From the NCBI RefSeq assembly GCF_034009455.1, contig NZ_CP125380.1, forward strand, positions 6,429,001-6,493,000: DNA of 64,000 nt. The letters run 5' to 3'. Of this stretch, positions 9,569-32,733 are shown in pieces. Position 1 is the stretch's first letter; each line of letters starts with the position of its first letter. The position numbers were made by a program, and so were the translations under genes. Origin of the DNA: Pseudomonas sp. P5_109 (GTDB lineage Bacteria > Pseudomonadota > Gammaproteobacteria > Pseudomonadales > Pseudomonadaceae). Below the pieces are notes generated by a model. That model was not told where the DNA came from, did no database searches, and worked only from the letters and a program-made list of their open reading frames with translations.

Positions 9569-9582
9569 GGGGATTTCTCCTG

Positions 9583-13110: not shown

Positions 13111-13242
13111 AATTACCCTTCGACTGTGTATTTTCCCGACAGCGACATCCTGTGCGCTCCACCTGACGATCTTGGGTAAAGTGCGCACCCTCATTGACCA
13201 CGGGACGCTTCACCATAGGCATCTCGACCACGGAAGCAGGCC

Positions 13243-18970: not shown

Positions 18971-18980
18971 CCCCTGCCCT

Positions 18981-19082
18981 CTGTAGGAGCGAGCCTGCTC
19001 GCGATGAACCTGAGAACGCTGCTGGGTGTCAGGTTGCCAGCGTTATCGTTGACGTCCATCGCGAGCAGGCTCGCTCCTACAA
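18981..19082. repeat. REP pair downstream of gbcA
   Basis: Arms CTGTAGGAGCGAGCCTGCTC (18981) and GAGCAGGCTCGCTCCTACA (to 19082) begin 11 bp after the gbcA stop. This is the last complete REP pair before a stretch of about 13.7 kb without one. Confidence 0.9.
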
Positions 19083-19142
19083 CCAGCTTAGAACTGTACG
19101 AAATATGATCTATCTCGTTCAGACCTATGCCAGCCGCACCTC

Positions 19143-19727
19143 CCAGCCTTCCGCGAACAAGTTATCCACACCTCCACCCACAGCTATTGGGGACAACTGT
19201 GGAAATCTCGCAAAATTTCTTCCCTGAAACCAAAGAAAAACCGTGACTTATCCAGAAGCCTGCTTTCAAGAACGCACTGATCACTTTTTGATCAATCTCT
19301 TGGAAGGCACGGTCTGTATAGCGTTCAGAAGATAGCGAACACCTTATCCACAGAAGCGCCAACAGACTTTGGGGGCAACTTGCGAGGTGCTGTGGAAAAC
19401 CGCTACAGGCCGCAAAAACTCTGCGCTTGCACAGGCTTAAGCGGTACAAAACCATGAAATGATCGTTTTTTGATCAGAATCCTGAAAGCCACGGTTTATA
19501 TGGCTTGTGGCGGTAAGCGAACATCTTATCCACAGAAGCGCCAACAGACTTTGGGGGCAAGTCGAAGCGCTCGAGCGTGCTTATCCCCCAGGAAAAACCA
19601 TGGAAAACCGCAACTTAGCGTGGTTGTTTTTTGATCACATGGCTGGAGAGCCCGATCTGCATGGGCTGTAGCGAGGGGCGAACAGGTTATCCACAGTGGC
19701 GTTAACAGGGATTGTGGGTAAATCCCA
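19143..19727. repeat. Tandem repeat array with four DnaA-box words
   Basis: This gene-free stretch consists of long imperfect direct repeats. TTATCCACA, the consensus DnaA box, occurs at 19162, 19344, 19526 and 19687, all in the same orientation with spacings of 182, 182 and 161 bp. Each unit is preceded by GCGAACA and contains TTTTTGATCA (19285, 19467, 19628) at the same relative place. Units two and three share GAAGCGCCAACAGACTTTGG directly after the box. A near-box TTATCCCCC lies at 19581. No open frame or terminator is convincing. It lacks the genes that flank Pseudomonas oriC, so it is more likely a DnaA-binding or titration array, or a structured repeat of unknown role. Confidence 0.75.
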
Positions 19728-20960
19728 TCAGACCCGGTTGAAGCAAGACCGCCCCGTGTCGATATCCAGATTCAATTCAAAGTCATTAAAGGCACGCCAG
19801 CCGAGCAAAATCGAGGGCACGTAGCGCCCAGACAATATCGACGGTGGAATGGTGAAGCCTGGATAATATTTGTAGCTGATCATCTGAGTGCTGCCCGGCA
19901 ATTTCAACACGCCCTTGAAGGCTTGGAAGCGTTGTCTTCCGGTGGCGTTCGTGCTTGAGTTAGGGCCCATGGAGTCGAAAGCGTTGACCGACTCACCTGG
20001 CGCAGCCGACGTCAGGTAATCCACGTTTCCGGTATCCACAATTGCCAATGTTGCCCGATTATCCAGCTGTGCTTCGATGGTCAGTCTCTGGTTGATGTCC
20101 GTGCGGGTGTAGGCAATGGGCGACTCGCATCGCGCGGCAGGCACAGGATTGAACTCCAGCGCTTTTTTGGTGATTTTCAGCCGCCCCAGTTTGCTGATCA
20201 GATCGAGCCCCAACAAATTGTCACGATCACTGACAAACACCAGCACATTCTTGAACTGGCTTGTGCCGACGGTTAGCGAATCAACAATTCCGAGGCTGGC
20301 AGACAGGTCCTTCTCGCCATAAAAGGTGCTGTAGGCGTAGTGGGAGTCGGTCAGCAACCTGATTCCCATCAGCTTCGCGGTTGCTTGATTGACGCGGGTT
20401 TGCGGAGCACCGGTATCCAGAACAAATCGAGCTGAATGACCACTTGCCCCATGGACGTCTATGAACGGCAGCTCTTGGTCAGCAATGGAAAAATCACTGG
20501 AATAGGGATGAATTGCCAGCACCTCTCGCTGCCGCGTTCTGCTCACCGAAAAATCATCACTGGCCCTCAATATCGAGAGCGACTCGTTGCCGAACATGGA
20601 AAACAGCACTGTCAGCTCAGCATCGGCTGCTATGAGCCGAGCGTGTTTTCGCTTGATCGCCAGGTAGTAGTCAGGGATCTGATTGGCGGCTTTTAGCTCC
20701 AACATCCGGCCAATCACGGAAACTGAGCAATTCAAGTTACTCATGGCATCCAGAAATTGCTCACAGCGTTGTCGCATCTGCGCCACGGTGGCTTTCTGCC
20801 CCTGCTTCGACTGCAGCCATTGATCATAATCCCTATCGACCTCATGACCTGCCCCAGAGCCGTTTGTCGGGGTGGCAGGCATCGATCCCGAAGACACGCA
20901 GATCGCCCATGCAAAGAGCATCAGAGACCGATTGAAAGCCGTCATGTTCAACCCATTCAT
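19728..20960 (-). CDS. Retropepsin-like aspartic protease domain protein
   Basis: A protein of about 410 residues with a signal peptide (MNGLNMTAFNRSLMLFAWAICVSSG). It has two aspartic-protease-like signatures: FVLDTGAPQTRVN followed by LLGLDLISKLG, and a second AIVDTGNVDYLT followed by SILLGWRAFNDFELNLD. Two DTG halves in one chain suggest an intramolecular pepsin-like pair of retropepsin lobes, exported to the periplasm. Start could be 20960 or 20945 (both ATG); further upstream codons lack a signal-like character. It is divergent from the secretion operon, so it may process a secreted protein, but nothing in the sequence proves this. The stop lies at the edge of the DnaA-box array. Confidence 0.7.
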   Translation of the reverse strand: MNGLNMTAFNRSLMLFAWAICVSSGSMPATPTNGSGAGHEVDRDYDQWLQSKQGQKATVAQMRQRCEQFLDAMSNLNCSVSVIGRMLELKAANQIPDYYLAIKRKHARLIAADAELTVLFSMFGNESLSILRASDDFSVSRTRQREVLAIHPYSSDFSIADQELPFIDVHGASGHSARFVLDTGAPQTRVNQATAKLMGIRLLTDSHYAYSTFYGEKDLSASLGIVDSLTVGTSQFKNVLVFVSDRDNLLGLDLISKLGRLKITKKALEFNPVPAARCESPIAYTRTDINQRLTIEAQLDNRATLAIVDTGNVDYLTSAAPGESVNAFDSMGPNSSTNATGRQRFQAFKGVLKLPGSTQMISYKYYPGFTIPPSILSGRYVPSILLGWRAFNDFELNLDIDTGRSCFNRV

Positions 20961-21191
20961 AAGAAACGAGTTTAATCCGCAAGCCGTGGACACCTGACAG
21001 ATCGCGCAACCATGCAGTACCTCGAACTGCGCATAAAAACTGTAGTTCACCGTGATGCTGGATGCAGAGCGAGGCGCATTCTTTCTCAAGTTATATTGTT
21101 CAAGACAAAATTTGTTTTACACTCAGGCAAGCAGTTAATTCCAATTGCCTGGGTTATTGAAGAAGTCCTTGGCGGGCACGGAGGTTAAACG

Positions 21192-21704
21192 GTGATGTGG
21201 CAGGGCAAGCTATCATTGATAGCGCCGAGCCATCGCTGCGCCAAAGGTTTTACGCTGATTGAATTACTACTGACGCTGGCTCTGCTGGCCACGCTTTCGA
21301 CAGTAGCTTATCCGCTGACGGCGGTGATGGGAAAACGCGACCGGGAACTTGAACTGCAGCGTTCGCTGCGGGAAATACGGCGGGCGATTGATTCTTATAA
21401 AGAAGCCGCGGACGACGGCCGTATTGAAAAAAGTATCAGCGACAGCGGTTACCCCCCCAACTTGCAAGCCTTGGTCCAGGGTGTCACCGACAAGAGTGAT
21501 ATCAAAGGCAGAAAACTGTTCTTCCTGCGCCGTATCCCCCGCGACCCTGTTTGTGAATGCCCCGAACTTCCACCCATAGATACCTGGCAGTTACGCAGTT
21601 ACCAAAGCAGTGTCGACAACCCATCAGAGGGAGAAGATGTATTTGACGTTTCATCCCGCAACCAACGGGAGAGTCTCAATGGAACGCCCTACACCCGGTG
21701 GTAA
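21192..21704 (+). CDS. Type II secretion pseudopilin, GspG-like (1)
   Basis: A 170-residue prepilin-like protein. The leader of 19 residues ends in CAKG, followed by FTLIELLLTLALLATLSTVAYP, which has the prepilin peptidase site (G/F), Glu5 and the N-methylated hydrophobic helix. The C-terminal globular part (LREIRRAIDSYKEAADDGRI, IPRDPVCECPELPPIDTWQLR) resembles GspG without its calcium-loop sequence. It starts at ATGATG behind GGAGG, is the first gene of the secretion operon, and overlaps the next pseudopilin by 26 bp. It is probably a minor or alternate pseudopilin. No prepilin peptidase is encoded nearby; the housekeeping PilD would have to process it. Confidence 0.88.
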   Translation: MMWQGKLSLIAPSHRCAKGFTLIELLLTLALLATLSTVAYPLTAVMGKRDRELELQRSLREIRRAIDSYKEAADDGRIEKSISDSGYPPNLQALVQGVTDKSDIKGRKLFFLRRIPRDPVCECPELPPIDTWQLRSYQSSVDNPSEGEDVFDVSSRNQRESLNGTPYTRW

Positions 21705-22068
21705 CCGGGCCTCCCGGGGATTTACCCTGATCGAACTGCTGGTGGTCATGGCGATCATTGCCACGCTCATGACTCTCGTCACGCCCCAATACTTTCGCCA
21801 ACACACCAAGGCCAAGGAAACCGTACTTCGGCATAATCTGACGTCGATCCGCCAGTCACTGGATCAATATCGAGAGGATCACGGCAACAACCCCGGATCC
21901 CTCCAGGACCTCGTCAACCGCCGCTACCTGCGGGAAATCCCCCTCGACCCCATTACTGGCAAGCGTGACACCTGGCAATTACAAACTGCCGATGAGCAAG
22001 GCCTGGGTGATGTGCGCAGCGGTGCCTCAGGCCAAGGCAATGACGGAACGCCCTATGCAGACTGGTAA
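21679..22068 (+). CDS. Type II secretion pseudopilin, GspG-like (2)
   Basis: A 129-residue pseudopilin with a 14-residue leader (MERPTPGGNRASRG) and methylation segment FTLIELLVVMAIIATLMTLV. The globular domain follows GspG layout: HNLTSIRQSLDQYREDHG, then NPGSLQDLVNRRYLREIPLDPITGK, ending GNDGTPYADW. Its ATG at 21679 lies inside the end of the previous gene in another frame, so translation is likely coupled. The C-terminal words NGTPYTRW (previous gene) and DGTPYADW (this gene) match, which shows that the two are duplicates. Confidence 0.9.
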   Translation: MERPTPGGNRASRGFTLIELLVVMAIIATLMTLVTPQYFRQHTKAKETVLRHNLTSIRQSLDQYREDHGNNPGSLQDLVNRRYLREIPLDPITGKRDTWQLQTADEQGLGDVRSGASGQGNDGTPYADW

Positions 22069-22246
22069 GCAGCCCTGATCCTCGCTAACTTGCGCGTCGC
22101 TACGCCTTTCCTCTCCTTGTATCTTCACGTGACCGTTCGTCGTAACTGTTATTTCTAACAGCTAGTGGCAGTCGCTCACTTGGCGTATTCATTTCAGACA
22201 TGATTTAACTTTTGAAATTTTTTGGACTCATTCCAAATAAAGCGAA

Positions 22247-22879
22247 ATGAATACGACAATGGAAAAACTGACTCCGATTGTCCATAGAGAAAACCTCATA
22301 GCGCTATTTTATGCTCGAGATTATCTATTAAACGCACATAAGAACGAAAAGCTCGTTATCAACGACAACACCCTTCAGACGGGTAAACAGCGCCAGCAAG
22401 GCTCGGTGTTCATGGGCATGTTGGTTTCAGTGGCAATTGTCGCGGTGATGCTGATGGAAACTGGCACGCTCTGGTCAAGTGTGCTGCAACGCGAACGCGA
22501 ACTGGAACTTTTGGCCCGCGGCGGTGAAATACGCCAGGCCATCGGCCTGTATTACGAACATGGCAAATCCTTCCCCAAAACCCTCGATGACCTGGTGCTG
22601 GATCGCCGCATGCCGACCACCAAACGCTACTTGCGCCGGGTCTATGAGGACCCCCTGTCGGGTACCACCGAATGGGGGCTGATCAAGGGCCCGGGCAACA
22701 GCATCATGGGCGTCTTCAGCACCGCCAAGGGAACACCTTTCAAGCAAAACAACTTCTCCAAAAAGAATCAGAGCTTCACGGGACAAGGCAGTTATCAAGG
22801 GTGGATGTTTCTGTACGTCCCTGGACAGAGTAACCCTCCAATAAGTTTCACGCCCAATGGAGTTGAACCGACCGGATGA
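22247..22879 (+). CDS. Atypical pseudopilin-like protein
   Basis: A 210-residue protein whose middle resembles the two preceding pseudopilins (RERELELLARGGEIRQAIGLYYEHGKSFPKTLDDL, DPLSGTTEWGL are shared landmarks, given here only as EIRQAIGLYY and LDDLVL). The membrane helix (SVFMGMLVSVAIVAVMLMETG) follows QRQQG, which looks like a prepilin leader end, but Phe1 and Glu5 are missing. About 53 residues precede it, far longer than a normal leader, so the true start may be internal or the start at 22247 may be wrong. It ends in a Pro/Gly-rich tail. It could be a GspK-like or non-cleaved tip protein; this is uncertain. Confidence 0.65.
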   Translation: MNTTMEKLTPIVHRENLIALFYARDYLLNAHKNEKLVINDNTLQTGKQRQQGSVFMGMLVSVAIVAVMLMETGTLWSSVLQRERELELLARGGEIRQAIGLYYEHGKSFPKTLDDLVLDRRMPTTKRYLRRVYEDPLSGTTEWGLIKGPGNSIMGVFSTAKGTPFKQNNFSKKNQSFTGQGSYQGWMFLYVPGQSNPPISFTPNGVEPTG

Positions 22880-22956
22880 AGTTAACAGCGACAAATCACC
22901 CTGATTGTTCCATGCAGTTCGGAACACGCATATCTGAATTGAAGGTGGACACCCAC

Positions 22957-24465
22957 ATGAAGAACCTACAGCGAAACAAGCGTTCCTTGCTGCGTTGGAT
23001 GATGGCGGCAGTGTTATTAGTACCCACACTCGTCTGGGCCCATGGCGCAGTGGATATTCCTGTTTCACGACAGGTGCATTGCTATACGCTCCCGGGTTTC
23101 TGGGGAGGTACCAATGACCCGGCCTGCAAAGCTGTACACGAGGTGAGCGGATCATATCCGGGGCAACAATGGAACGAAGTGGCCAAACTGGTCAAAGACT
23201 ACAAAAATGACACTGCGGTCATGGAGGCGATACCGGATGGACAACTCTGCTCTGCCGCCGACCCACTCAAAAACGGACTTAACCTACCCTTGGCCTCCTG
23301 GTACAAAACATCTATCACACCCAAGAATGGCATCATGGAAGTACGGATTATCGGTACCGCCCCCCATGTCGAAAGCTTCGTGAAAATTTACCTCAGTAAA
23401 CCCGGCTATAACGCTGCGACGACGAAGCTGAAGTGGAGCGACCTGGAATTAATCCATGAAGAAACGATGAAGGTGGCCCGCACTGACTGGGGCAGTCAGC
23501 CGCCGAAAATTGCAGGGGCCACGGGTTTCTTCAAGTTCAACGTAGCCATTCCCCCAGGCCGTTCGGGTGATGCCGTGCTCTATACCCGGTGGCAGCGTGA
23601 GGATCCGGCAGGCGAAGGCTTTTACAACTGCAGCGACATCAACATTGCCGGTGCCGGGACACCTGATCCGCTACATGATCTGGGTCCATTTATTTCCGGT
23701 ATGGATGACCTCAAAGTAGGGTACGCCGTGCATTTCCGCATCTTGGGCGGTCCGCCGGCGTTCAAGGAAGTCGTCGATATCACGCAAAAGATCGACCAAA
23801 ATAACTTGAACCCTAACGTCTGGGGGCGTCAGGTAGCTGAACAAGTGCCGGCGAATATCGCCAGGATTGGTGAAAAAAACGGCAATAACGTGGTGTTCAA
23901 CGCCATCAACGCTGCCGCCAACTCTGTCTACGCAACCCATGAGGCTTACACCAAGGCCATGTCCATCCTCCCCGGTGATGGTGAGACGCCTATCAACCCA
24001 ACAGCCCCAGTAGCAAGGATTACCGGCCCAAGCACTTTGGTGTCAGGACAGACTTATACCTTTTCTGGCCAGTCCTCAATCGGGTACAACGGTAGGTTGC
24101 TCTTTAGTTGGGTCCCTGCTGGGACGACCGAAGTACTGAATGGCGACACAGTGACGTTCAAAGCCTACTCCTCCACACAACCAGGAGATCACGTTGTACG
24201 GTTGATCGTGCGCGATACTCAAAATGGGAAAGCCAGCGCCCCCACCGAGTTCCCCGTGAAGATCAATCCGGCCAACGGCGACACTTATCCCCCTTATGTA
24301 GAGAACAAAACACCTCCATACGCCCCTAATGAGAAGGTTTCGAACAAAGGTGCAAACTATCAGTGCAAACCCGGTGGTGAGAGTGGGTGGTGTTCGCAAG
24401 CCCCGAGCTTTTACGCGCCTGGAACGGGTAGTCACTGGAAAGATGCCTGGATCGAAATAGATTAA
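22957..24465 (+). CDS. AA10 lytic polysaccharide monooxygenase with chitin-binding domain
   Basis: A 502-residue secreted copper enzyme. A 28-residue signal peptide ends ...PTLVWA, so the mature protein begins with His (HGAVDIPVSRQ), the first arm of the copper histidine brace; the second is His109 of the mature form (IIGTAPHVES). The AA10 catalytic domain extends to about FYNCSDINIAG. A middle domain follows, then an Ig/PKD-like domain (PVARITGPSTLVSGQTYTFSG), and a C-terminal CBM5/12-type chitin-binding module (NKGANYQCKPG..GWCSQ..SHWKDAW). It should oxidatively cleave chitin, perhaps on insects or fungi, as for V. cholerae GbpA, a known type II substrate. Start chosen for its AAGGTGG site; ATG at 22876 is an alternative. 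Confidence 0.93.
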   Translation: MKNLQRNKRSLLRWMMAAVLLVPTLVWAHGAVDIPVSRQVHCYTLPGFWGGTNDPACKAVHEVSGSYPGQQWNEVAKLVKDYKNDTAVMEAIPDGQLCSAADPLKNGLNLPLASWYKTSITPKNGIMEVRIIGTAPHVESFVKIYLSKPGYNAATTKLKWSDLELIHEETMKVARTDWGSQPPKIAGATGFFKFNVAIPPGRSGDAVLYTRWQREDPAGEGFYNCSDINIAGAGTPDPLHDLGPFISGMDDLKVGYAVHFRILGGPPAFKEVVDITQKIDQNNLNPNVWGRQVAEQVPANIARIGEKNGNNVVFNAINAAANSVYATHEAYTKAMSILPGDGETPINPTAPVARITGPSTLVSGQTYTFSGQSSIGYNGRLLFSWVPAGTTEVLNGDTVTFKAYSSTQPGDHVVRLIVRDTQNGKASAPTEFPVKINPANGDTYPPYVENKTPPYAPNEKVSNKGANYQCKPGGESGWCSQAPSFYAPGTGSHWKDAWIEID

Positions 24466-24492
24466 CTACATTCCGATTGATTTCCACCTATT

Positions 24493-24523
24493 AAGCGCCG
24501 CGCTTTGCAGTGCGGCGCTTTTA
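24493..24523 (+). terminator. Intrinsic terminator after the LPMO gene
   Basis: A nine-base stem AAGCGCCGC / GCGGCGCTT is followed by TTTTAAT, 27 bp past the LPMO stop. It would end the pseudopilin-LPMO transcript and separate it from gspG and the machinery genes. Confidence 0.85.
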
Positions 24524-24695
24524 ATAAACGAAAACATACTTCAAATTAATGACATAACTCTGGTTCGACCTTAAACGACAATCCGATTCACCCAGAAGTA
24601 CAGTGACGCAGTTCTACCGGCTGTGCCTGTGTAATTACGGGCCGGAAAAACCCTATACAACCGCCGTGCCTTGGCACTCCCAACAGGGTATTTCA

Positions 24696-25136
24696 ATGCG
24701 CTCTCTATCGATACCTTCTATTGCCTCACGCGCACAACAGGGTTTCACCTTATTAGAACTACTGGTTGTTCTACTAATTATCGCCCTGCTCGCCGGCTAC
24801 GTCGGACCGAAGATGTTCGATCGACTTGAATTGGCCAAGGTGCAATCCGCCAAAGGCCAGATGAAGTCCCTGGGCGATACCTTGAATCAGTACCGCCTGG
24901 ACAATAGTCATTACCCCAGCGAAGCCCTGGGCTTGAAAGCGCTGATCGAACGCCCTGCATCCGAGCCCAATTGGCATGGCCCTTATCTGCCGAAAGGCGC
25001 ACCACCCGATCCATGGAACAATCCCTACCTGTACAAAAACCCTGGAGCAGCCCACGAGATCGAGATTATCTCCCTGGGCCGCGATGGCCAGGCTGGCGGC
25101 GAAGGGACGAGTGCTGACATCGTGTTTGGTCAATGA
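24696..25136 (+). CDS. gspG: Major pseudopilin GspG
   Basis: A 146-residue canonical GspG. Leader MRSLSIPSIASRAQQG, then FTLLELLVVLLIIALLAGYVGP with Glu5. The C-terminal domain contains the family hallmarks HYPSEALGLKALIERP, GPYLPKGAPPDPWNNPYLY and the calcium-loop region ISLGRDGQAGGEGTSADI. It should assemble the periplasmic pseudopilus that pushes substrates through the secretin. Start at 24696 rather than an upstream ATG, because the leader then has normal length. It overlaps the transglycosylase gene by 4 bp, which places it in the machinery operon. Confidence 0.95.
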   Translation: MRSLSIPSIASRAQQGFTLLELLVVLLIIALLAGYVGPKMFDRLELAKVQSAKGQMKSLGDTLNQYRLDNSHYPSEALGLKALIERPASEPNWHGPYLPKGAPPDPWNNPYLYKNPGAAHEIEIISLGRDGQAGGEGTSADIVFGQ

Positions 25137-25603
25137 ACATGCACCGTTTCGTCCTCGCACTGGGCGCCATGTTTTTGATCAACGGCGCGCACGCCAATTG
25201 TTGGCAACTGGCGGGCAGCCGATACCACATTGACCCATTGCTGCTCTACGCCATCGCCAGAGTTGAGTCGGGCTTGAACCCGATCGCCCGCAACCTCAAC
25301 AGCGACGGCAGCCATGACATCGGCTTGATGCAAATCAACAGCCGCCATCTGCCAGCACTGGCGCAATTCGGCATCACCGAACAACACCTGCTGACCCAAC
25401 CCTGCACCAGCGTGATCGTCGGAGCATGGGTGCTCGCCGGGTTCATCCGCGAGAAAGGTTACGGCTGGCAAGCCGTCGGTGCCTATAACGCCGGTACGCG
25501 CCCCGGACGTGATGCCCGTCGTTCGCGCTACGCCGCCGCCGTCTGGCGTTATTACGGTGAACTGCAGCAGCGCAGGCAACAACTGGCCGGGCCAACACCA
25601 TGA
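25133..25603 (+). CDS. Lytic transglycosylase (IagB-like)
   Basis: A 156-residue exported muramidase-type enzyme. A signal peptide (MNMHRFVLALGAMFLINGAHA) precedes an SLT domain with catalytic Glu in LLYAIARVESGLNP and the motifs GLMQINSRHLP and VGAYNAGTRPG. It should open peptidoglycan locally so that the secretion complex can cross the periplasm, as for IagB-like enzymes of type III and type IV pilus systems. It overlaps gspG at its start and gspF at its end by 4 bp each, so all three are translationally coupled. Confidence 0.92.
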   Translation: MNMHRFVLALGAMFLINGAHANCWQLAGSRYHIDPLLLYAIARVESGLNPIARNLNSDGSHDIGLMQINSRHLPALAQFGITEQHLLTQPCTSVIVGAWVLAGFIREKGYGWQAVGAYNAGTRPGRDARRSRYAAAVWRYYGELQQRRQQLAGPTP

Positions 25604-26784
25604 TCGACTTCGAGGCACGCATCATCCGCGATGGCCATTTGCAGACCCTGCGCATCCAGGCGCCGGACCTTGCCCAGGCACGCCGGCAGTTGCAGGACGA
25701 CGGTACGCAGATCATCTCTGTGCAAGCGCGTCGCCAACTGAAGCTGCCCAGCCGTCGCACAAAATTTGCCCTGGGCCTGTTCATTCAGGAACTGGTGGTA
25801 TTGCTCGATGCCGGCCTGGTGCTGGTGGAAGCGGTGGAAACCTTGCGCGACAAAGCGGCACCCGGCGTCAATCGGCAGCTCATGAGTGAGCTGCTGGAAT
25901 CGATGTACCAGGGCAACGCGCTGTCCCGGGCAATGCAGTTCAAGCCGCAGACGTTTCCTTCGCTGTTGATTGCTACCGTGGCGTCCTCGGAGCACAGCGG
26001 CCAGTTGTCCGTCGCGCTGCGGCGTTATCACCATTTCGAGGCTCACCTGGAGACGGTGAAAAAACGCATCAGCGGTGCACTGATGTATCCCTTGGTGGTA
26101 CTGAGTGTCGGCGCGCTGATCCTGCTGTTCCTGTTGTTTTTTGTGATCCCGCGATTTGCCTCGGTGTTCGATGCGGTAGCCGATCTGCCGGCCACCGCCC
26201 GGTTCATGGTGTGGTGGGGAGCACTGGTGCAAACGCGTGGTGTGGAGCTGATGCTCGGCACCCTGGTGGCTGTCGCCAGCCTGGTGCTGCTGTTGCGCAG
26301 CGACGCCTTCAAGCAGCGGGCCAGCGCACTGTTCTGGAAAATCCCGAGCCTGGGTGCCCAGCGCACGCTGTTTATCCTCGCCCGCTTTTACCGCACCGCC
26401 GGAATGCTGCTGATGGGCGGGATGCCGGTGGTCACGGCGATCGCGTTGTCCGGCGCGCTGCTGCCCGGTGAACGCCAGGGCGCACTGCGCCAGGCCATGA
26501 CCGACATCCAGGCTGGCCAGCCGCTGTCGACATCCCTGGCACGCCACCAACTGACCACCGCTGTCGCTGAACGCCTGTTGCGGGTGGGCGAGCAAAGCGG
26601 TGAATTGGCGGCGATGTGTGAACGCATTGCGCAATTTCATGATGAGGCGCTCGAACGGGCCATCGAATTGTTCAGCAAGGTCTTCGAACCCCTACTGATG
26701 CTGGTGGTCGGCGGCTTGATCGGGCTGATCGTGTTCATGTTGTACATGCCGATTTTCGAGTTGGCGGGCTCCATCCAGGGGTAA
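25600..26784 (+). CDS. gspF: Type II secretion inner-membrane platform protein GspF
   Basis: A 394-residue polytopic protein with two T2SSF domains (residues about 65-190 and 265-390) and membrane helices at LMYPLVVLSVGALILLFLLFFVIP, GVELMLGTLVAVASLVLLL and the C-terminal LLMLVVGGLIGLIVFMLYMPIF (each shown in part). Hallmarks are the FIQELVVLLDAGLVLVEAVE start and LLRVGEQSGELAAM before the last helix. It anchors the GspE ATPase at the membrane. It overlaps the transglycosylase gene by 4 bp and precedes gspE by 4 bp. Confidence 0.94.
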   Translation: MIDFEARIIRDGHLQTLRIQAPDLAQARRQLQDDGTQIISVQARRQLKLPSRRTKFALGLFIQELVVLLDAGLVLVEAVETLRDKAAPGVNRQLMSELLESMYQGNALSRAMQFKPQTFPSLLIATVASSEHSGQLSVALRRYHHFEAHLETVKKRISGALMYPLVVLSVGALILLFLLFFVIPRFASVFDAVADLPATARFMVWWGALVQTRGVELMLGTLVAVASLVLLLRSDAFKQRASALFWKIPSLGAQRTLFILARFYRTAGMLLMGGMPVVTAIALSGALLPGERQGALRQAMTDIQAGQPLSTSLARHQLTTAVAERLLRVGEQSGELAAMCERIAQFHDEALERAIELFSKVFEPLLMLVVGGLIGLIVFMLYMPIFELAGSIQG

Positions 26785-26788
26785 TGCG

Positions 26789-28426
26789 ATGAGTGATCAA
26801 ACCCGACAATGGCAAATCCTCGCCGACCGGCAAGGGCTGTCGATGGCCAATTATTTGCTGGAGGAGCTGAACAACACGCCCGAGCAATTGCAGGCAATTG
26901 CCAGACAACTCGGTTTGAAGGCCATCGACCCGCGAGAACTCGACAATCACTGGCGTTTCGACCTGCTGCCCCTGCCCCAGGCGCTGATCCATCAGGTGCT
27001 GGTGGTGGACAATCAAGGTGAGCCCTGCCTGGTGTTGGGGGATCCGTTTTCACTGGCCAGTCGTCGCTGGATCCAGTCTTCCAGAACCTTGCAATCACTG
27101 CCTCTGGGCATGAGTTTGGCGGGCGCGGTGAAACAGCAGTTGACCCTGGCCGAAGCCAGCCAACGGGTCATGCAACCCTTCGGCGAGGACGACGAAAATG
27201 CTCGAGTAATGCAGGCAGCCCAGGAGATCTCACTGAGCAGTATTGCCCGCGACGACAACCCGGTGGTGCGCCTGGTCAACTCAATGTTATTCGATGCCCT
27301 GCAAAGCCGCGCGAGCGATATTCACGTCGAATCCACGCCCCAGGGCCTGGAGATCAAGTACCGCATCGACGGTGTGCTGCAAAAAATGGGGCAGGCAGCC
27401 GGGCTGGATATGGCAGAGCAGTCGCTGTCGCGGATCAAGGTCTTGTCGGAGCTGGACATAGGCGAACGACGGGTGCCTCAGGACGGTCGTTTCAAGGCCA
27501 GGATTCAGGCTCGCGAAGTGGATTTTCGGGTGTCGATCATGCCCAGTATCCACGGCGAAGATGCCGTGCTGCGTATCCTCGACAAGTCGCAACGGGGCGA
27601 AGCACTGAGCCTCGATTCCCTGGGACTGGCTGCCGACACCATCGCGCGTATTCGTGTCCTGGCCAGTGAGCCCTACGGCATGTTGCTGGTGACGGGGCCA
27701 ACCGGTAGCGGCAAATCCACCACCTTGTATGCCGCCTTGTCGGAGACCAATACTGGCGAAAAGAAAATCATCACCATCGAAGACCCGGTGGAATACGAGT
27801 TACCAGGGGTCTTGCAAATTCCGGTCAACGACAAAAAGGGGCTGACCTTCGCCCGTGGCCTGCGCTCGATCCTGCGTCATGACCCGGACACGATTCTGGT
27901 GGGGGAAATCCGCGACGGCGAGACTGCCGGCATAGCCGTACAGGCAGCGCTGACCGGGCACCTGGTGATGTCCTCGGTGCATGCCAACAGCGCCTTCAGC
28001 GTGTTGGAGCGCTTCATCTACATGGACGTGGAGCCGGCCAGTTTTGTCGAGGCGCTGAACGGTGTGGTTGCCCAACGACTGGTACGGCGCATCTGCGAGG
28101 AGTGCGCCGTGGATATCGAGCCCGATGCTGAACTGACGCGACTGGCGAAGCTGTCGCCATTGCACTTGAAGGACGGTCGTTACCGGGTCGGCAAGGGTTG
28201 TGAGGCCTGTCGTCACACCGGCTATCGCGGGCGATTGGCACTGGCCGAGGTGTTGACCGTCACCGACAGCATCAAGGAAGGATTGCTGCAACGCAGTTCG
28301 GCGTCTGCCCTGCGGGAGTTGGCGCAGCAGGCTGGCCACCTGTTTATCCGCGATATCGCACTGGCCAGCGCTGCCGCCGGACACACCACACTCAAGGAGA
28401 TTCACCGTGTCATCTCTCTGTATTGA
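26789..28426 (+). CDS. gspE: Type II secretion ATPase GspE
   Basis: A 545-residue secretion ATPase of the GspE/PilB family that powers pseudopilus assembly. It has an N-terminal domain (residues 1-130), Walker A GPTGSGKSTT near residue 302, the Asp box ITIEDPVEYELPGVLQIPV, Walker B ILVGEIRDGETAG, and the His box LTGHLVMSSVHANSA. A tetracysteine zinc module (CEEC near 436 and GCEACRHTG near 470) is typical of GspE. It overlaps the next gene by 20 bp. Confidence 0.95.
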   Translation: MSDQTRQWQILADRQGLSMANYLLEELNNTPEQLQAIARQLGLKAIDPRELDNHWRFDLLPLPQALIHQVLVVDNQGEPCLVLGDPFSLASRRWIQSSRTLQSLPLGMSLAGAVKQQLTLAEASQRVMQPFGEDDENARVMQAAQEISLSSIARDDNPVVRLVNSMLFDALQSRASDIHVESTPQGLEIKYRIDGVLQKMGQAAGLDMAEQSLSRIKVLSELDIGERRVPQDGRFKARIQAREVDFRVSIMPSIHGEDAVLRILDKSQRGEALSLDSLGLAADTIARIRVLASEPYGMLLVTGPTGSGKSTTLYAALSETNTGEKKIITIEDPVEYELPGVLQIPVNDKKGLTFARGLRSILRHDPDTILVGEIRDGETAGIAVQAALTGHLVMSSVHANSAFSVLERFIYMDVEPASFVEALNGVVAQRLVRRICEECAVDIEPDAELTRLAKLSPLHLKDGRYRVGKGCEACRHTGYRGRLALAEVLTVTDSIKEGLLQRSSASALRELAQQAGHLFIRDIALASAAAGHTTLKEIHRVISLY

Positions 28427-29141
28427 GCACGTGGTGTTGCTGCAAAGCACGGGCGCCAGCTGGGCCGCCCGCCCCCGCTGGAAAACCGCAACGACCTGGC
28501 GCAGTCACCAGGACGGCGAGCCCCTGGGTGCTTGCGCCGCCCTGCTGGAACGGGCGCCAAGAGGGCGTTTGCGCTATCTGGACCGGGTCACATTACTGTT
28601 GGGCTTTCCCCATGTGCACTACTGGATTCTGCCCTGGCAAGCAGGCCTGTATAGCCAGGCCGATTGGCAAGGTTACGCCCGGGCGAGCTTGAGCCAGCAG
28701 ACCGGCATTGACCCGACCCTCTGGCAGGTACAGGTCGCACCGCCAGGCTTCGGTCAAAGCTGCCTTGCGGTGGCTACTCCCCTGGATCTGCTGGAAGACT
28801 TGCGCATCCTGTTCAAGCTCAAGGCCCTGCCGTTTAGTGCCTGTGTACCCTTGCTGACAGCAACCCTGCAGCATTACGGCAAGCAGTTGCGTGGTGACTG
28901 TGTGTTGGCGGTGCCTGAAACCAGCGCCCTCGGTTGCGTCTACCTGCAGCAAGGGAAAGTCAGCCAGGTCTGCTTGATACACACCGCTCCCGACAGTCTC
29001 CTGAGTAACAACCTGTTCACCGCCAACCTATTGGTTGAACAACACCCGCCAACCACCTTTGTCGCCACCCCTCGCCCCGTGGAGCCGCCCGAACACTGGC
29101 TGGGGCCACCCCACCCCTGGTTGATGGAGCCGGCACCATGA
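28407..29141 (+). CDS. Secretion operon protein in the GspL/PilM position
   Basis: A 244-residue protein without a signal peptide or membrane helix. It starts at GTG 28407 behind AAGGAGA, 20 bp inside gspE. Features are weak: Trp-rich segments (HVHYWILPWQAGLYSQADWQGYARASL), a likely beta-rich core (CVLAVPETSALGCVYLQQGKVSQVCLI) and a proline-rich tail. The position just before a PilN-like protein, the lack of membrane segments and the actin-like pattern (VYLQQGKVSQV) suggest the cytoplasmic GspL/PilM equivalent, but I cannot recognise the family from the sequence. Co-translation with gspE is likely. Confidence 0.65.
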   Translation: MSSLCIEHVVLLQSTGASWAARPRWKTATTWRSHQDGEPLGACAALLERAPRGRLRYLDRVTLLLGFPHVHYWILPWQAGLYSQADWQGYARASLSQQTGIDPTLWQVQVAPPGFGQSCLAVATPLDLLEDLRILFKLKALPFSACVPLLTATLQHYGKQLRGDCVLAVPETSALGCVYLQQGKVSQVCLIHTAPDSLLSNNLFTANLLVEQHPPTTFVATPRPVEPPEHWLGPPHPWLMEPAP

Positions 29142-29692
29142 ACCTCGCGCTGCGCAACCGCTGGCAACGCCTGCGGGCCCCGCGCTTGCCGACGATCGAT
29201 TTTCTGCACCCCGGTGCCACCCGCCGCCCCCTTGTGGCGTTGCTATGGCTGATCGCCCTGATGGTGTTGCTCACCACATCGCAGCACTGGCAGCAGATGC
29301 AGCATCAACAGCGACAGACCGACGAATTGGAGCAGCAGTTCATCCAACTGGCCCGGCAACAGGAACAACTGATTCAGTCTGCCATCCACCTTTCACCCCA
29401 GCAAAAGCAACAGTTGGTGATCTTCGCCAGGCAAGCGGTCACCCCGTTCCCCCTGCTCGATGCCGTGGGGCAAGCGTGGTCCCACGATGTGGCGCTGACA
29501 CGCCTGGAGGTCAACACCCAGACCCAAATACTGAACCTTGACCTGGAAGCTCGGGTTCTGGGCGACGCGTTTCGCTTTGTCGAGCGACTCAAGACCCTGA
29601 AAGGCATTCAAGTAAACCTGCAACAAAGCAGCCGTAAAACCAACGATCCAGCCCTCCCGGTGCTGGTCAAGCTAACCCTTGACGGCGGATAA
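29138..29692 (+). CDS. PilN/GspL-like bitopic membrane protein
   Basis: A 184-residue protein with a short cytoplasmic N-terminus containing the PilN-like IDFLHPGATRR, one transmembrane helix (PLVALLWLIALMVLLTT, residues 30-47), a Gln-rich periplasmic coiled coil (QMQHQQRQTDELEQQFIQL), and a small ferredoxin-like C-terminal domain (LTRLEVNTQTQILNLDLEAR). This is the architecture of PilN, MshI and the C-terminal half of GspL. It overlaps the preceding gene by 4 bp. It should form the inner-membrane platform with the PilO-like protein. Confidence 0.85.
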   Translation: MNLALRNRWQRLRAPRLPTIDFLHPGATRRPLVALLWLIALMVLLTTSQHWQQMQHQQRQTDELEQQFIQLARQQEQLIQSAIHLSPQQKQQLVIFARQAVTPFPLLDAVGQAWSHDVALTRLEVNTQTQILNLDLEARVLGDAFRFVERLKTLKGIQVNLQQSSRKTNDPALPVLVKLTLDGG

Positions 29693-29695
29693 GCC

Positions 29696-30256
29696 ATGAT
29701 CAAGCGCTTGACGCGTCGCCTGCCCTCCCTCGTTCAATGGCTACCACGCCTGCAGTGGCAACTGGCGCATTGGCAGCAAATCCTCGGCTTCTGGGGCCTG
29801 CTCGCCCTCGGGGTCATTACCTGCTCGTTGTTGATTAAATGGACACTGATTGTCCCGTCCCTTGAACAGGACGCCTTGCGTCGCCAGGAACTGCAGGCAG
29901 CCATCGCCGAACGCCCTCAAGATGTACAGGTCACCGAGCCGGCAGTGGTAGAAAAATTACCCAGTGCCCAGGCCTTCGCGACTCGCCTGGAAAAGATCCT
30001 GACGCTGATTCAGCAACAGGGATTCAACATCGACCAGACCACCCTGTCCTACTCAACGCCCGGCGATGACGGACTGCAACGGCTGGACATCGACATCCCC
30101 CTGGCTGGCACTTATCCAGCATTGCGTCAGGCCTTGGCCATCGTGGTGCAAGAACCGGCGGTGCGTATCGAAAACCTCACTCTGGAGCGCAAGGAGATCG
30201 ACATTGCGCAGTTGACCATCAACCTCAAGTTGAGCGTATTGGGGGTGGTTGATTGA
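29696..30256 (+). CDS. PilO/GspM-like bitopic membrane protein
   Basis: A 186-residue protein with one transmembrane helix (ILGFWGLLALGVITCSLLIK, residues about 29-50) and a periplasmic domain that begins with a coil (LRRQELQAAIAE) and ends in a PilO/GspM-like ferredoxin fold (RLEKILTLIQQQGFNIDQ..LPLAGTYPALRQALAIVV). It starts 3 bp after the PilN-like gene and its stop overlaps the next start. It is the predicted partner of the PilN-like protein and of the PilP/GspC-like protein. Confidence 0.85.
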   Translation: MIKRLTRRLPSLVQWLPRLQWQLAHWQQILGFWGLLALGVITCSLLIKWTLIVPSLEQDALRRQELQAAIAERPQDVQVTEPAVVEKLPSAQAFATRLEKILTLIQQQGFNIDQTTLSYSTPGDDGLQRLDIDIPLAGTYPALRQALAIVVQEPAVRIENLTLERKEIDIAQLTINLKLSVLGVVD

Positions 30257-30753
30257 AAGTGCCACTCTATCTGCGGATCTTGCTACTGCTCACCCTGTGC
30301 GGTTGCGGCTGGTTGTTCTGGCAGGATCAGGCCGGCAGCCCCAACACACCAACATCCCCCGCAGCAGTGTCCGAAGTATCCACCCCGACGCCACCTGAGC
30401 CGACGCAAACGGCGGTTGCTGAAACCGGCCCTCTGGTGGATGTATTCCCGATTCAGACCTGGAAGCCACCACCTCCACCCCCGGTGGTCAGCAACCCGAC
30501 ACCGACACCGCCGCCCCTGCCGTTTGTTGTCAGTGCGCAATGGCGCTATCAAAACCAGGCCAAGATCGTCGTGCTCAGAGGTAACGGCAACCAATACACC
30601 TTGTGCAACCGATGCACCGTACCGGGCCGGATTCGGCCTGGCGGCATGCTCGACAAAGACTACCGGCTGGACAAATTGACCGACACCAGCGTGGTGCTGA
30701 CGTACTTACCGATGAAGCACGTCAGCACTTTACATCTGGGAACCCAACCGTGA
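30253..30753 (+). CDS. GspC/PilP-like periplasmic linker protein
   Basis: A 166-residue protein with an N-terminal membrane anchor (LYLRILLLLTLCGCGWLFW), a long Pro/Thr/Val-rich linker (residues 28-95), and a small C-terminal HR-like beta domain (KIVVLRGNGNQYTLCNRC..RPGGMLDKDYRLDKLTDTSV). This matches GspC/PilP proteins that connect the inner-membrane platform to the secretin. The LLLLTLCGC segment could also be read as a lipobox (TLCGC). Start is probably TTG at 30253, overlapping the previous stop, or GTG at 30259. Confidence 0.82.
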   Translation: MKVPLYLRILLLLTLCGCGWLFWQDQAGSPNTPTSPAAVSEVSTPTPPEPTQTAVAETGPLVDVFPIQTWKPPPPPPVVSNPTPTPPPLPFVVSAQWRYQNQAKIVVLRGNGNQYTLCNRCTVPGRIRPGGMLDKDYRLDKLTDTSVVLTYLPMKHVSTLHLGTQP

Positions 30754-30771
30754 CGGAAAAAGAGAGTGCCC

Positions 30772-32733
30772 ATGTCAACGCGCACACTAGTTCACTGCTG
30801 CCTTGGATTGTTCCTGCTGACCGGTTGCCAGACGCAGCGCGCCATCGAGCAAAGCGATGAACTGCGCCAGCAAGGTCAAATCGTGGATTCGGTAGAACTG
30901 CTGCAAGCCGAAGCCAGGGAAAACCCCGACGATGTACGACTGCGCACCGCCAACTTCAGCAAACTGGAAATATTGGTCGCCCAATACAGCCGCGAGGCCA
31001 GCGCCGCGTTGCTGCGTGGTGATGACGCCGCGGCCATCGCCGCCATGCAAACCATCCTCAAGTACGACCCTGGCAACCTCGGCGCCCGCCAGGAAATCCA
31101 GAGCATCCAGATGATGCAGCAGCTACGCCCGCAATTGGCTCGGGCTTTCGCGATGAAAGGCAGCAATCCGGTAGAAGCCCTGAATCTGGTGCGCCAGATC
31201 ATCGCGCAGAAACCCAACTATCGCGCAGCCCTTGAGCTGCGCAATGCCCTGACCCGCGAACTGGTGAGCGCCGATTACCTGAGCCCCGACCTCAGTGACG
31301 CCATGCGCAAACCCGTGAGTCTGGAGTTCAGCTCCCAGAGCCTGACGGCCATCTTCGAGACCATCGCCCGCGTGTCAGGCGTCAACTTCGTCATCGACAA
31401 GGACGTGAACCCCAATGCCGCCGCCAGCATGACCGCCACCAGAACCACCGCTGAAGATGCACTCAACCTGCTGCTGGCAACCCAGCAACTGCAGAAGAAA
31501 ATCCTCAACGCCAACACCATCCTGGTGTACCCCTCACGGCCGGAAAAAGATCGCGAATACCGTGAACTGGCGGTGCGTACCTTCTACCTGAGCCACAGCG
31601 ACCCGAAGTTGATCGCCGCCGAAATCAAGCAGTTGCTCAAGCCCAAGGAAGTGCTGGTGGATGAGCGCCTCAACGCAGTGATTGTGCGCGATGGTCTCGA
31701 CACCTTGAGCGCCGTGGAAAAACTAGTGGAAGCCATCGACATCGCCCAGTCGGAAGTGACCATTGATATTCAGGTGCTCGAGGTCAGCCTGGCGGACGAA
31801 CAGAACCTGGGGATCGCCTACCCCGAAAGCATCGGCCTTTCGGTGGGCAACTTCACCAACCTGCCCGAGGGGCTCGCCGGCACCCCTATCAGCGCATTGC
31901 GGGGGATCAATGGCGATAACATTTTGCTCGACACCGGGAGTACTTCAGCACGGATCAACTTGCTACAACGCAGCGGCAACACCGTGACCCTGGCCAACCC
32001 AAGGGTTCGTGTGAAAAACCGCGAGCAGGCTCAGGTCAATATCGGAGACAAGATTCCAGTGATCACCACCACGACCGCCAACCAGATCAGCACTTCTTCA
32101 GTGAGCTACCAGGACGTGGGCCTGAAAATCGAAGTGCAGCCCAACATCAGCCTGGCCGACGAAATCAGCCTCGATCTGTTTGTGGAAATGAGCCACATCA
32201 CCAAACGCATCCCTGGCTCGGAAAATGTTCCGGCTACCTTTGAGCTGGGATCCCGTTCCACCAAAACCATGCTGACAGCACGCAACAATGAAACCCAAGT
32301 GGTCTCAGGACTCATCCGCACGGCAGATATTGATGAAGGGTCGGGCTTGCCATGGCTGAGCAATATCCCGTGGCTGGGCAAAACCTTGTTCGGTACCAAT
32401 CTGGGCACCCAGCAGAGGACAGAAATCATCCTGCTGCTCACCCCCCGGATCGAGCGCAATCTGGATCTGCCGATCTCTCAGGTCAGCACCTTCCACAGCG
32501 GTACCGAGGCGCGCAGTTCCACCGAAGGGATGATCCTGCGTGACACCAGCAATAGCGTCACTCTCAAATCCAGCGGCGCTCCGAGTACCCTGGGTGCACC
32601 GCTGCTACCGCCGATGCAGCAACCGGACGCCAGCTGGCAGCCGTTGCCGCCGCCGGTGCAACAGCAAACGGCAGCGCCGACCGTACCGCCACCCGTACAG
32701 CCGGCACCCATTCCCGCAGCCCTTGGTCCATAA
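30772..32733 (+). CDS. gspD: Secretin, GspD/MshL-like lipoprotein
   Basis: A 653-residue outer-membrane secretin. An N-terminal lipobox (LFLLTGC) predicts lipidation. TPR-like helices (about residues 30-160) precede an N0 domain (KPVSLEFSSQSLTAIFETIA) and a single N1-type module (YLSHSDPKLIAAEIKQLLKP). The secretin domain follows (LANPRVRVKNREQAQVNIGD, SYQDVGLKIEVQP, EIILLLTPRI). The Pro/Gln-rich C-terminal tail of about 110 residues is unusual. One N1 repeat plus a TPR N-terminus is closer to MshL-type secretins than to classical XcpQ. ATG 30772 was chosen over GTG 30766. It ends the operon. Confidence 0.93.
   Translation: MSTRTLVHCCLGLFLLTGCQTQRAIEQSDELRQQGQIVDSVELLQAEARENPDDVRLRTANFSKLEILVAQYSREASAALLRGDDAAAIAAMQTILKYDPGNLGARQEIQSIQMMQQLRPQLARAFAMKGSNPVEALNLVRQIIAQKPNYRAALELRNALTRELVSADYLSPDLSDAMRKPVSLEFSSQSLTAIFETIARVSGVNFVIDKDVNPNAAASMTATRTTAEDALNLLLATQQLQKKILNANTILVYPSRPEKDREYRELAVRTFYLSHSDPKLIAAEIKQLLKPKEVLVDERLNAVIVRDGLDTLSAVEKLVEAIDIAQSEVTIDIQVLEVSLADEQNLGIAYPESIGLSVGNFTNLPEGLAGTPISALRGINGDNILLDTGSTSARINLLQRSGNTVTLANPRVRVKNREQAQVNIGDKIPVITTTTANQISTSSVSYQDVGLKIEVQPNISLADEISLDLFVEMSHITKRIPGSENVPATFELGSRSTKTMLTARNNETQVVSGLIRTADIDEGSGLPWLSNIPWLGKTLFGTNLGTQQRTEIILLLTPRIERNLDLPISQVSTFHSGTEARSSTEGMILRDTSNSVTLKSSGAPSTLGAPLLPPMQQPDASWQPLPPPVQQQTAAPTVPPPVQPAPIPAALGP

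What the first reader, a model, noticed from the sequence alone, without database searches (positions are those of the whole stretch)
21192..32733. Minimal MSHA/type II hybrid secretion system with its own chitin-active LPMO cargo
The block encodes pseudopilins, GspG, an IagB-like transglycosylase, GspF, GspE, PilM/PilN/PilO/PilP-position proteins and a short lipoprotein secretin, in one compact run with 4-20 bp overlaps. An AA10 LPMO with a chitin-binding module sits among the pseudopilins. Classical GspH, I, J, K and a prepilin peptidase are absent. GbpA of V. cholerae is a type II substrate, so a system dedicated to the LPMO is plausible. The organisation resembles neither Xcp nor Hxc of P. 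aeruginosa.
Basis: partly seen in the sequence, partly recalled or inferred. Interest (0 to 1): 0.82.

Follow-up and report, generated by a model that had tools for sequence, protein, structure and literature searches.

The report
Secretion machine with swappable chitin enzyme
A soil Pseudomonas carries a compact, unusual relative of the type II protein-secretion machine built around one gene for a probable chitin-attacking enzyme, and across related species the machine stays much the same while that enzyme gene is repeatedly exchanged for a different version.

Summary
The block is real: 13 genes (21192-32733) encode three minor pseudopilins, an AA10 LPMO, GspG, an IagB-like transglycosylase, GspF, GspE, PilM/N/O- and GspC/PilP-like proteins and a lipoprotein secretin. 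The MSHA-hybrid reading fails: ATPase, platform and secretin trees each put it in a 100/100 clade apart from the sampled Txc/Xcp-like and Hxc-like T2SSs, T4aP and MSHA. Relatives lie beside RHS-repeat proteins or, in this same genome, curli-export genes csgEFG.

The LPMO link is strong. All 32 assemblies found with the machine have LPMO sequence in the same slot, 30 intact; among 398 Pseudomonas genomes no full-length A-type LPMO was seen at another locus. The machine is conserved but the cargo is exchanged: sister loci mostly 80-98% identical fall to 48-62% across the LPMO gene. One cassette resembles the LPMO beside the genome's own classical T2SS.

Best reading: a dedicated LPMO secretion system with a swappable cargo slot. 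Export is inferred, and companion T2SSs are always present. Txc-CbpE is the precedent, so this is a new variant of a known kind.

The parts
21192..21704 (+). psp1, minor pseudopilin (leader G^FTLIE)
   Evidence: N_methyl 3.8e-07; FTLIE in 25 of 25 named loci; 49% identical to the equivalent in G326 and in the csg-linked system of the same genome
21679..22068 (+). psp2, minor pseudopilin, GspG-like; probable start 21679 (ORF opens at 21610)
   Evidence: N_methyl 3.7e-09, T2SSG 0.0052 below cut-off; 26-nt overlap with psp1 as in L165 and others
22247..22879 (+). psp3, probable tip-type minor pseudopilin (leader G^SVFMG, no Glu+5)
   Evidence: no Pfam or NCBIfam hit; conserved in the same place in related loci and 33% identical to psp3 of the csg-linked system; leader read directly
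22957..24465 (+). Cargo: AA10 LPMO; signal peptide, then His1 (mature N-terminus near 23041), GbpA_2, weak PKD-like module, C-terminal carbohydrate-binding module; ORF opens at 22876
   Evidence: LPMO_10 9.5e-41, GbpA_2 3.2e-09, PKD_4 0.008 below cut-off; two His invariant in 30 of 30 slot LPMOs; PDB relatives incl. CbpD 7sqx and, for the C-terminus, 6z41
24493..24520 (+). Hairpin with T-run between LPMO and GspG, terminator-like
   Evidence: fold -21.8 kcal/mol; a strict scan finds a strong one in only 3 of 25 named loci; not in the tool's terminator list
24603..25136 (+). GspG, major pseudopilin (probable start 24696)
   Evidence: TIGR01710 149.8 bits, cut-off 88.85; T2SSG 6e-36
25133..25603 (+). 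IagB-like lytic transglycosylase
   Evidence: SLT 3.2e-25; PRK15328 IagB 180 bits, below cut-off 208; not seen at the 9 relatives outside the genus nor in L089/L090
25600..26784 (+). GspF-like platform protein
   Evidence: T2SSF 4.4e-42; TIGR02120 233 bits, below cut-off 424
26789..28426 (+). GspE-like assembly ATPase
   Evidence: T2SSE 2.9e-121; TIGR02533 480 bits, below cut-off 630; Walker A in 25 of 25 named loci
28407..29141 (+). PilM/GspL-cytoplasmic-domain-like protein
   Evidence: no Pfam hit, no profile match to PilM or GspL; low-confidence model (pLDDT 62) whose best PDB hits are PilM (E 2e-4) and, lower, GspL cytoplasmic domains (E 3e-3), TM only 0.2-0.3
29138..29692 (+). PilN / GspL-C-terminal-like protein
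   Evidence: TIGR01709 gspL C-terminal part 3.8e-4; the equivalent in L203 hits PilN 1.5e-06
29696..30256 (+). GspM subtype b / PilO-like
   Evidence: T2SSM_b PF10741 1.4e-06, above cut-off
30253..30753 (+). GspC/PilP-like linker: N-terminal helix, Pro-rich stretch, HR-type beta domain
   Evidence: no sequence hit; model pLDDT 73.8; top Foldseek hits GspC HR 3oss (TMt 0.67) and PilP 2y4y, PulC HR 6hcg at rank 8, all with E of 0.02 or more
30766..32733 (+). GspD-like secretin with lipobox (LTGC), TPR-like N-terminal region, one N0 and one N1 domain
   Evidence: Secretin 5.1e-33, Secretin_N, STN; PDB profile search; alignment A3; lipobox read directly

Best explanation
A self-contained, divergent type II secretion machine dedicated to exporting the LPMO encoded within it. 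Steps: (1) Sec exports the LPMO, a signal peptidase exposes His1, and it folds and binds copper in the periplasm. (2) Genome-encoded PilD processes GspG, psp1, psp2 and psp3; psp3 probably caps the pseudopilus. (3) GspE on the GspF-PilM-N-O platform drives pseudopilus growth, the IagB-like enzyme opens peptidoglycan, and the GspC/PilP-like protein docks the platform to the lipid-anchored secretin. (4) The pseudopilus pushes the LPMO out, where it attacks chitin (fungi, arthropods). The LPMO slot is a cargo cassette exchanged by homologous recombination in the conserved flanking genes, which may change substrate preference while the machine stays fixed. Shown: gene content, order, conserved His pair, linkage, cargo exchange. 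Inferred: export, cargo recognition, recombination route, role on chitin.
For: All 19 genomes with a strong A-type match among 398 have it at this locus. Cargo identity hardly follows the machine (r = 0.29, against 0.71-0.94 for the nine machine genes outside the F/E/D yardstick). Sharp exchange borders in sister loci and conflicting trees. CBZ-4 carries in the slot an LPMO 54% identical over its length to the LPMO beside the window genome's own classical T2SS, and its genome (G307) has no T2SS of that type. Machine parts complete, two of them by fold only. Precedents: Txc-CbpE, CbpD via Xcp.
Against: No secretion assay. All 18 carriers searched also hold another T2SS gspE, so export by a companion cannot be excluded. 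G127 keeps an open LPMO after losing gspG-gspD: recent decay, or another export route. G097 and G148 have shorter LPMOs whose catalytic part is 49% identical to the query and no block gene nearby, so related catalytic domains do live without the machine. LPMO transcripts may end at the hairpin; co-transcription with gspG-D is not shown. GspE/F/D miss NCBI's equivalog cut-offs. The slot could be swapped under selection unrelated to export.
Confidence: 0.7

Rival explanations
1. The LPMO is exported by a classical companion T2SS; the block builds a short adhesive pseudopilus or other surface structure and the LPMO is a regulatory or ecological partner in the operon.
For: Every one of the 18 carriers searched has another T2SS gspE. 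G127 keeps an open LPMO without the machine. LPMOs are substrates of classical T2SS (Xcp-CbpD, Txc-CbpE).
Against: The companions differ between carriers, judged by gspE identity: only X-type in G000, only T-type in G046 and G291, only Hxc-type in G145 and G307. Eight of 18 carriers lack the X-type, LPMO-linked T2SS. No intact machine was found with an empty slot. GspG passes the T2SS major-pseudopilin cut-off.
Confidence: 0.17
2. The machine shows the LPMO on the cell surface or at the pseudopilus tip, giving a chitin-bound adhesin-enzyme in the manner of GbpA rather than a freely released enzyme.
For: GbpA-like module order. The curli-linked relative in the same genome suggests that surface structures may be exported by this clade.
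Against: Ordinary signal peptide and no pilin-like or lipid anchor on the LPMO (read from the sequence). No evidence of retention.
Confidence: 0.1
3. An MSHA-type pilus variant with an unrelated passenger gene.
For: Separate PilM and PilN genes and a lipoprotein secretin resemble pilus systems; MSH loci also lack a peptidase (PMC6668835, passages).
Against: Outside the MSHA rows in the E, F and D trees; MshL 95 bits against cut-off 250; no MshM-type ATPase in the block.
Confidence: 0.03

Closest known systems
Txc T2SS and its substrate CbpE (P. paraeruginosa PA7)
   Same: A T2SS whose substrate is a chitin-binding protein encoded beside it (PMC12369383, passages). The window genome's second T2SS (L088) has that layout, with an LPMO directly upstream.
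   Different: Txc is an Xcp-like T2SS. The block here is a different clade with separate PilM/PilN genes, T2SSM_b, three minor pseudopilins, IagB, a short lipoprotein secretin and a swappable cargo. That L088 is Txc-type is inferred from the F113 description (PMC3570484, passages), not tested by sequence.
Hxc T2SS
   Same: Lipid-anchored secretin (HxcQ as a lipoprotein is recalled, not looked up); linked substrate.
   Different: Separate clade in all three trees; the Hxc-like loci L123/L124 (so named by me from gene order) have H, I, J, K matches and another order.
csg-linked T2SS-like system in the same genome (2.64-2.67 Mb)
   Same: Same clade; E-M-N-O-P-D-psp1-psp2-psp3 order.
   Different: Followed by csgEFG instead of an LPMO; gspG-gspF lie about 14 kb away on the other strand; no IagB or LPMO match in L089/L090.
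RHS-linked relatives (L207, L209, L064/L211)
   Same: Same machine clade and a very similar block.
   Different: RHS-repeat proteins beside it instead of an LPMO.
MSHA pilus
   Same: Single locus, no peptidase, secretin-ATPase-platform core.
   Different: Other branches in the trees; curated scores not met.
Xcm (P. putida GB-1), Hpl (Pseudomonas), Oxp (Geobacter)
   Same: Other T2SS-like clusters; Xcm and Hpl appear in passages, Oxp is recalled.
   Different: Sequences not compared; any of them could belong to this clade.

Membership tests
Classical type II secretion system | GspE, GspF and GspD above NCBIfam equivalog cut-offs | tested here: not met
   480/630, 233/424, 141/351 bits; the genome's classical T2SS passes: 664, 483, 492
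Classical type II secretion system | Major pseudopilin GspG | tested here: met
   TIGR01710 149.8 bits, cut-off 88.85
Classical type II secretion system | Minor pseudopilins recognised as GspH, I, J, K | tested here: not met
   psp1 below the GspH, I, J cut-offs (it passes only the general pilin-leader domain model), psp3 no hit; psp2 was not given to NCBIfam; three minor pseudopilins occupy the role
Classical type II secretion system | Fused GspL | tested here: not met
   separate M and N genes
Classical type II secretion system | GspC with HR domain | tested here: inconclusive
   no sequence hit; model resembles GspC HR, TMt 0.67, E 0.022
Classical type II secretion system | Groups with Xcp/Txc-like and Hxc-like systems in E, F, D trees | tested here: not met
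   separate clade, 100/100 in each tree
Classical type II secretion system | Exports folded proteins from the periplasm | not testable with these tools
   needs mutants and a supernatant assay
MSHA pilus | MshL secretin score | tested here: not met
   95 bits, cut-off 250.2
MSHA pilus | Groups with MshE, MshG, MshL | tested here: not met
   with 4 MSHA loci for E and F and 7 for D; L239 has a long branch and sits apart from the other MSHA rows in E and F; long-branch warnings in D
MSHA pilus | mshM in the locus (mandatory in the published model) | tested here: not met
   the only ATPase found in 21192-32733 is GspE-like
Type IVa pilus | PilB and PilQ scores and clade | tested here: not met
   PilB 441/676, PilQ 135/284 bits; outside the few T4aP rows
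AA10 LPMO (GbpA/CbpD-like) | LPMO_10 domain with N-terminal His and second His | tested here: met
AA10 LPMO (GbpA/CbpD-like) | Oxidises chitin | not testable with these tools
   enzyme assay needed
Txc-CbpE type dedicated system | T2SS machine with adjacent LPMO as specific substrate | tested here: inconclusive
   linkage met (32 of 32); specificity of export not tested

The most novel reading that the evidence does not exclude
There is an unnamed clade of minimal T2SS machines (G-F-E-M-N-O-P-D plus three minor pseudopilins), each wedded to one kind of cargo: LPMOs here, RHS-repeat proteins in other gammaproteobacteria, curli-type export in the same Pseudomonas genome. In the LPMO branch the cargo slot works as an exchange cassette: whole LPMO genes, even of another LPMO subfamily, are swapped by recombination through the conserved flanks, so the machine must accept substrates sharing as little as about 20% identity. 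Species would retune chitin attack without changing the secretion apparatus.
Probability: 0.45. Interest if true: 0.8.

Novelty: new variant of a known kind. Interest (0 to 1): 0.64.

Why it matters
How T2SSs recognise substrates is a long-standing open question because substrates share no linear signal (recalled). A machine with one linked cargo that nature has repeatedly replaced by LPMOs down to about 20-25% identity is a ready-made experiment: whatever the accepted cargos share is a candidate recognition feature, and only 23 columns are invariant across 30 cargos. The machine also looks simpler than the 12-gene textbook T2SS (separate PilM/PilN, three minor pseudopilins, lipid-anchored secretin with a TPR-like region). 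It occurs in Pseudomonas species known (by recall of their names) from soil, plants and mushrooms, where attack on fungal chitin is plausible.

Tried and rejected
MSHA hybrid: rejected by trees and scores. Membership in the Hxc-like or Txc/Xcp-like clade: rejected. Looking for a carrier with no other T2SS: none; G046 and G291 first looked empty, but L121/L122 showed a T-type T2SS. G364 as co-decay of machine and cargo: dropped, because unrelated genes there (dgcB, two other gspE copies) are broken too, so assembly error is likely. Conserved terminator after the LPMO: strong in the window but in only 3 of 25 named loci by a strict scan. No sigma-70-like promoter match in the region. Sequence-profile matches of M and P to PilM/GspL and PilP/GspC failed; structure models helped. 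Ten literature searches listed no paper recognisable as describing the cluster; lists were capped at 10-15 of up to 66 papers, subscription papers are mostly missing, and I saw only passages of the papers cited.
Full report
What is there. The window lies at 6,429,001-6,493,000 of a 6.96-Mb chromosome; the nearest named GspF is that of Pseudomonas laurylsulfatiphila, 95% (where the window's own record may be left out). Upstream are a Rieske oxygenase gene and a divergent aspartyl-protease gene; downstream, on the other strand, are ETF-domain, Fe-S and FMN-oxidoreductase genes (dimethylglycine catabolism dgcAB by recall). Between them lie 13 same-strand ORFs: psp1, psp2, psp3, LPMO, gspG, iagB-like, gspF, gspE, M, N, O, P, gspD. 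M has no Pfam match, but its low-confidence model is nearest to PilM and then GspL cytoplasmic domains. P has none either, but its model (helix, Pro-rich stretch, small beta domain) is nearest to GspC HR and PilP (E-values weak, 0.02 or more). N and O match GspL C-terminal and T2SSM_b models. The secretin has a lipobox, a TPR-like N-terminal stretch, one N0 and one N1 domain. psp3 carries a leader without Glu+5. So the H-I-J-K set is not absent but reduced to three minor pseudopilins. No peptidase is in the block; an A24 peptidase sits at 6.02 Mb beside a pilC-like gene.

What kind of machine. NCBI's curated models accept the genome's classical GspE, GspF and GspD (664, 483, 492 bits) but not the block's (480, 233, 141 bits); GspG passes. 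In IQ-TREE trees of E (32 rows), F (34) and D (32), the block groups at 100/100 with the csg-linked system of its own genome, a system in G326 and nine loci from seven other genomes of the class. It lies apart from the X-type (Txc/Xcp-like), Hxc-like and T-type T2SSs, T4aP and MSHA; these type names are mine, from gene order and similarity. Caution: treekit warned of long branches (L239 MSHA, PilQ, some relatives); Xcm, Hpl and Oxp were not in the set; rows L061-L063 of the F tree were labelled csg by GspF similarity only, since csgEFG was seen only in the window's genome. GspF relatives at 37-45% identity occur in 128 further Pseudomonas genomes of the 398. Outside the genus the clade looks rare: a psp1 profile matched 8 of 398 phylum-wide genomes at E <= 1e-25, own genome included, with at most nine candidates scored per genome. 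All nine fetched relatives had E, F and D of this clade, eight of nine had gspG beside them, and none showed an LPMO or IagB match.

Cargo beside the relatives. I gave Pfam ten neighbouring ORFs from seven loci. RHS-repeat proteins lie beside the machine in L207 (three ORFs) and L209 (one), and a 2061-residue Transglut-plus-RHS ORF follows psp3 in G326 (L211). The others were two ORFs without a hit (L206, L210), a ShlB-type transporter (L210), a second gspE (L202) and a response regulator (L204). Other neighbours were not examined. In the window's own genome the run E-M-N-O-P-D-psp1-psp2-psp3 is followed by csgE, csgF and csgG. That each of these is a cargo is inference.

Linkage of the LPMO. 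Genus survey with GspF: 146 of 398 genomes at E <= 1e-60 (at most four candidates scored per genome), 18 of them (own included) in the block's own group at 77-100% identity, G364 in two pieces. The other 16 loci show all 13 genes in order, though G145 (L036) has its LPMO in two overlapping frames and G291 (L040) has psp3 and PilO broken (L174 is the same contig). A scan of named genomes gave 25 Pseudomonas loci (a 26th hit, in a non-Pseudomonas MAG at 20% identity, was dropped), all with an LPMO in the slot. Of these 25, 21 show no fault in the 12 machine genes; L174 has psp3 and PilO in two frames, L188 has gspF in two frames and its contig ends early, as does L186's, and L173's GspG match falls in two frames. 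Searching the 398 genomes with the LPMO (at most three candidates scored per genome) gave 33 genomes, 19 with strong A-type matches: 17 carriers of the machine (all but G307, whose cargo is another type; G364 in pieces) and G127 and G269. The other 14 have weak or partial matches (E 2e-35 to 9e-16). The best of these, G097 and G148, have shorter LPMOs 49% identical over the catalytic part, as alike as slot LPMOs are to each other, and no other block gene in the 20 kb around. G127 and G269 are deletion remnants at the same site: psp remnants and LPMO, gspG-gspD gone; G127's LPMO is open, G269's has lost an internal part. G127 still has Hxc-like and T-type gspE by identity, no X-type.

Companion systems. 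Ten of the 18 carriers have an X-type gspE (75-100% identical), and all ten have an LPMO within about 4 kb of it. In the window genome this is a gspC-M cluster with the LPMO directly upstream. Of the eight carriers without it, seven have no LPMO gene but the slot one; G023 has one more. No carrier lacks every other T2SS, so genomics alone cannot prove which machine exports the slot LPMO. The companions differ, however, and none of them is common to all carriers.

Cargo exchange. Over 23 named loci (253 pairs; L186 and L188 left out as their contigs end early) LPMO identity hardly follows the machine (r = 0.29), while nine machine genes follow it at 0.71-0.94; F, E and D (0.94-0.99) form the yardstick itself. 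Of two flanking genes the Rieske gene, nearly invariant, gave 0.49 and ETF-B 0.85 (190 pairs). In the 102 pairs whose F, E and D average 88% or more (the script's column header says 90) the median LPMO identity is 45%, the machine genes' 72-91%. The first set gave the same picture: LPMO median 41.6% over 120 pairs, machine genes 58-86%. Nucleotide profiles show sharp borders: P. grimontii against P. marginalis PgKB35 is 82-98% along the block but 52-59% over most of the LPMO, rising again at its C-terminal module. KBW05 against CBZ-4 falls to 48-62% over the LPMO gene with 86-99% next to it; the rest of that block is 76-99%. P. sivasensis and P. cyclaminis show a milder drop (60-70%), the two P. 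gingeri strains one limited to the 5' part (72-76%). Trees conflict: the machine pairs KBW05 with CBZ-4 (100/100), the cargo pairs CBZ-4 with PDM05 (100/100) and KBW05 with P. nabeulensis (100/98); nine other machine forks are unresolved. The CBZ-4 cargo is 54% identical over its length to the second LPMO of the window genome, the one beside the classical T2SS, whereas the window's own slot LPMO is 24% identical to that protein. CBZ-4's genome (G307) has no X-type gspE. Seven slot cargos checked by Pfam all have LPMO_10 and GbpA_2. Point evolution alone would hardly give such borders, so I read this as gene replacement through the flanks.

Against known systems. Txc of P. paraeruginosa secretes CbpE, a chitin-binding protein encoded close by (PMC12369383, PMC8623646, passages), and CbpD leaves by Xcp (PMC10550240, PMC7902821, passages). 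A T2SS of a fungal endosymbiont releases chitin-binding protein and chitinase for entry into hyphae (PMC4166002, passages). So 'a T2SS for an LPMO' is known. New here are the machine clade, the cargo placed inside the pseudopilin block, and the cargo exchange. Ten capped searches listed no description, but the library lacks most subscription papers.

Verdict. Observation confirmed; MSHA reading not supported; dedicated LPMO secretion is the best explanation (0.7) with export unproven; new variant of a known kind.

Noticed in passing
G000:C1 2644-2669 kb (L089, L090): A second machine of the same clade in this genome is followed directly by csgE, csgF and csgG, with gspG-gspF about 14 kb away on the other strand: a T2SS-like machine next to curli export genes.
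   Followed up: partly
G000:C1 458-470 kb (L088): Classical T2SS (gspC-M) with its own LPMO directly upstream, probably Txc-CbpE type; 10 of 10 block carriers with this gspE type have an LPMO beside it.
   Followed up: partly
window 19728-21089 (-): Divergent retropepsin-like aspartyl protease gene next to psp1; among the 25 named loci only P. laurylsulfatiphila (L165) showed it.
   Followed up: no
L211 4292-10477: 2061-residue Transglutaminase-core plus RHS-repeat ORF directly after psp3 of the G326 system; transposase-like ORFs (read by eye) lie upstream of the machine in L064.
   Followed up: no
L202 7786-9231: A second, divergent gspE-like gene follows psp3 in this relative.
   Followed up: no
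window 18971-19728: Intergenic stretch with inverted GAGCAGGCTCGC-type repeats and other repeated short sequences, as in REP elements (recalled).
   Followed up: no
L162 (G148) about 9296-9940, L163 (G097) about 9011-9649: Short LPMO genes whose catalytic part is 49% identical to the slot LPMO, without the machine; possible sources of cassettes.
   Followed up: no
L036 (G145) 12630-14137 and L047 (G364): LPMO split into two frames in G145; several unrelated genes broken in G364, probably assembly error.
   Followed up: partly
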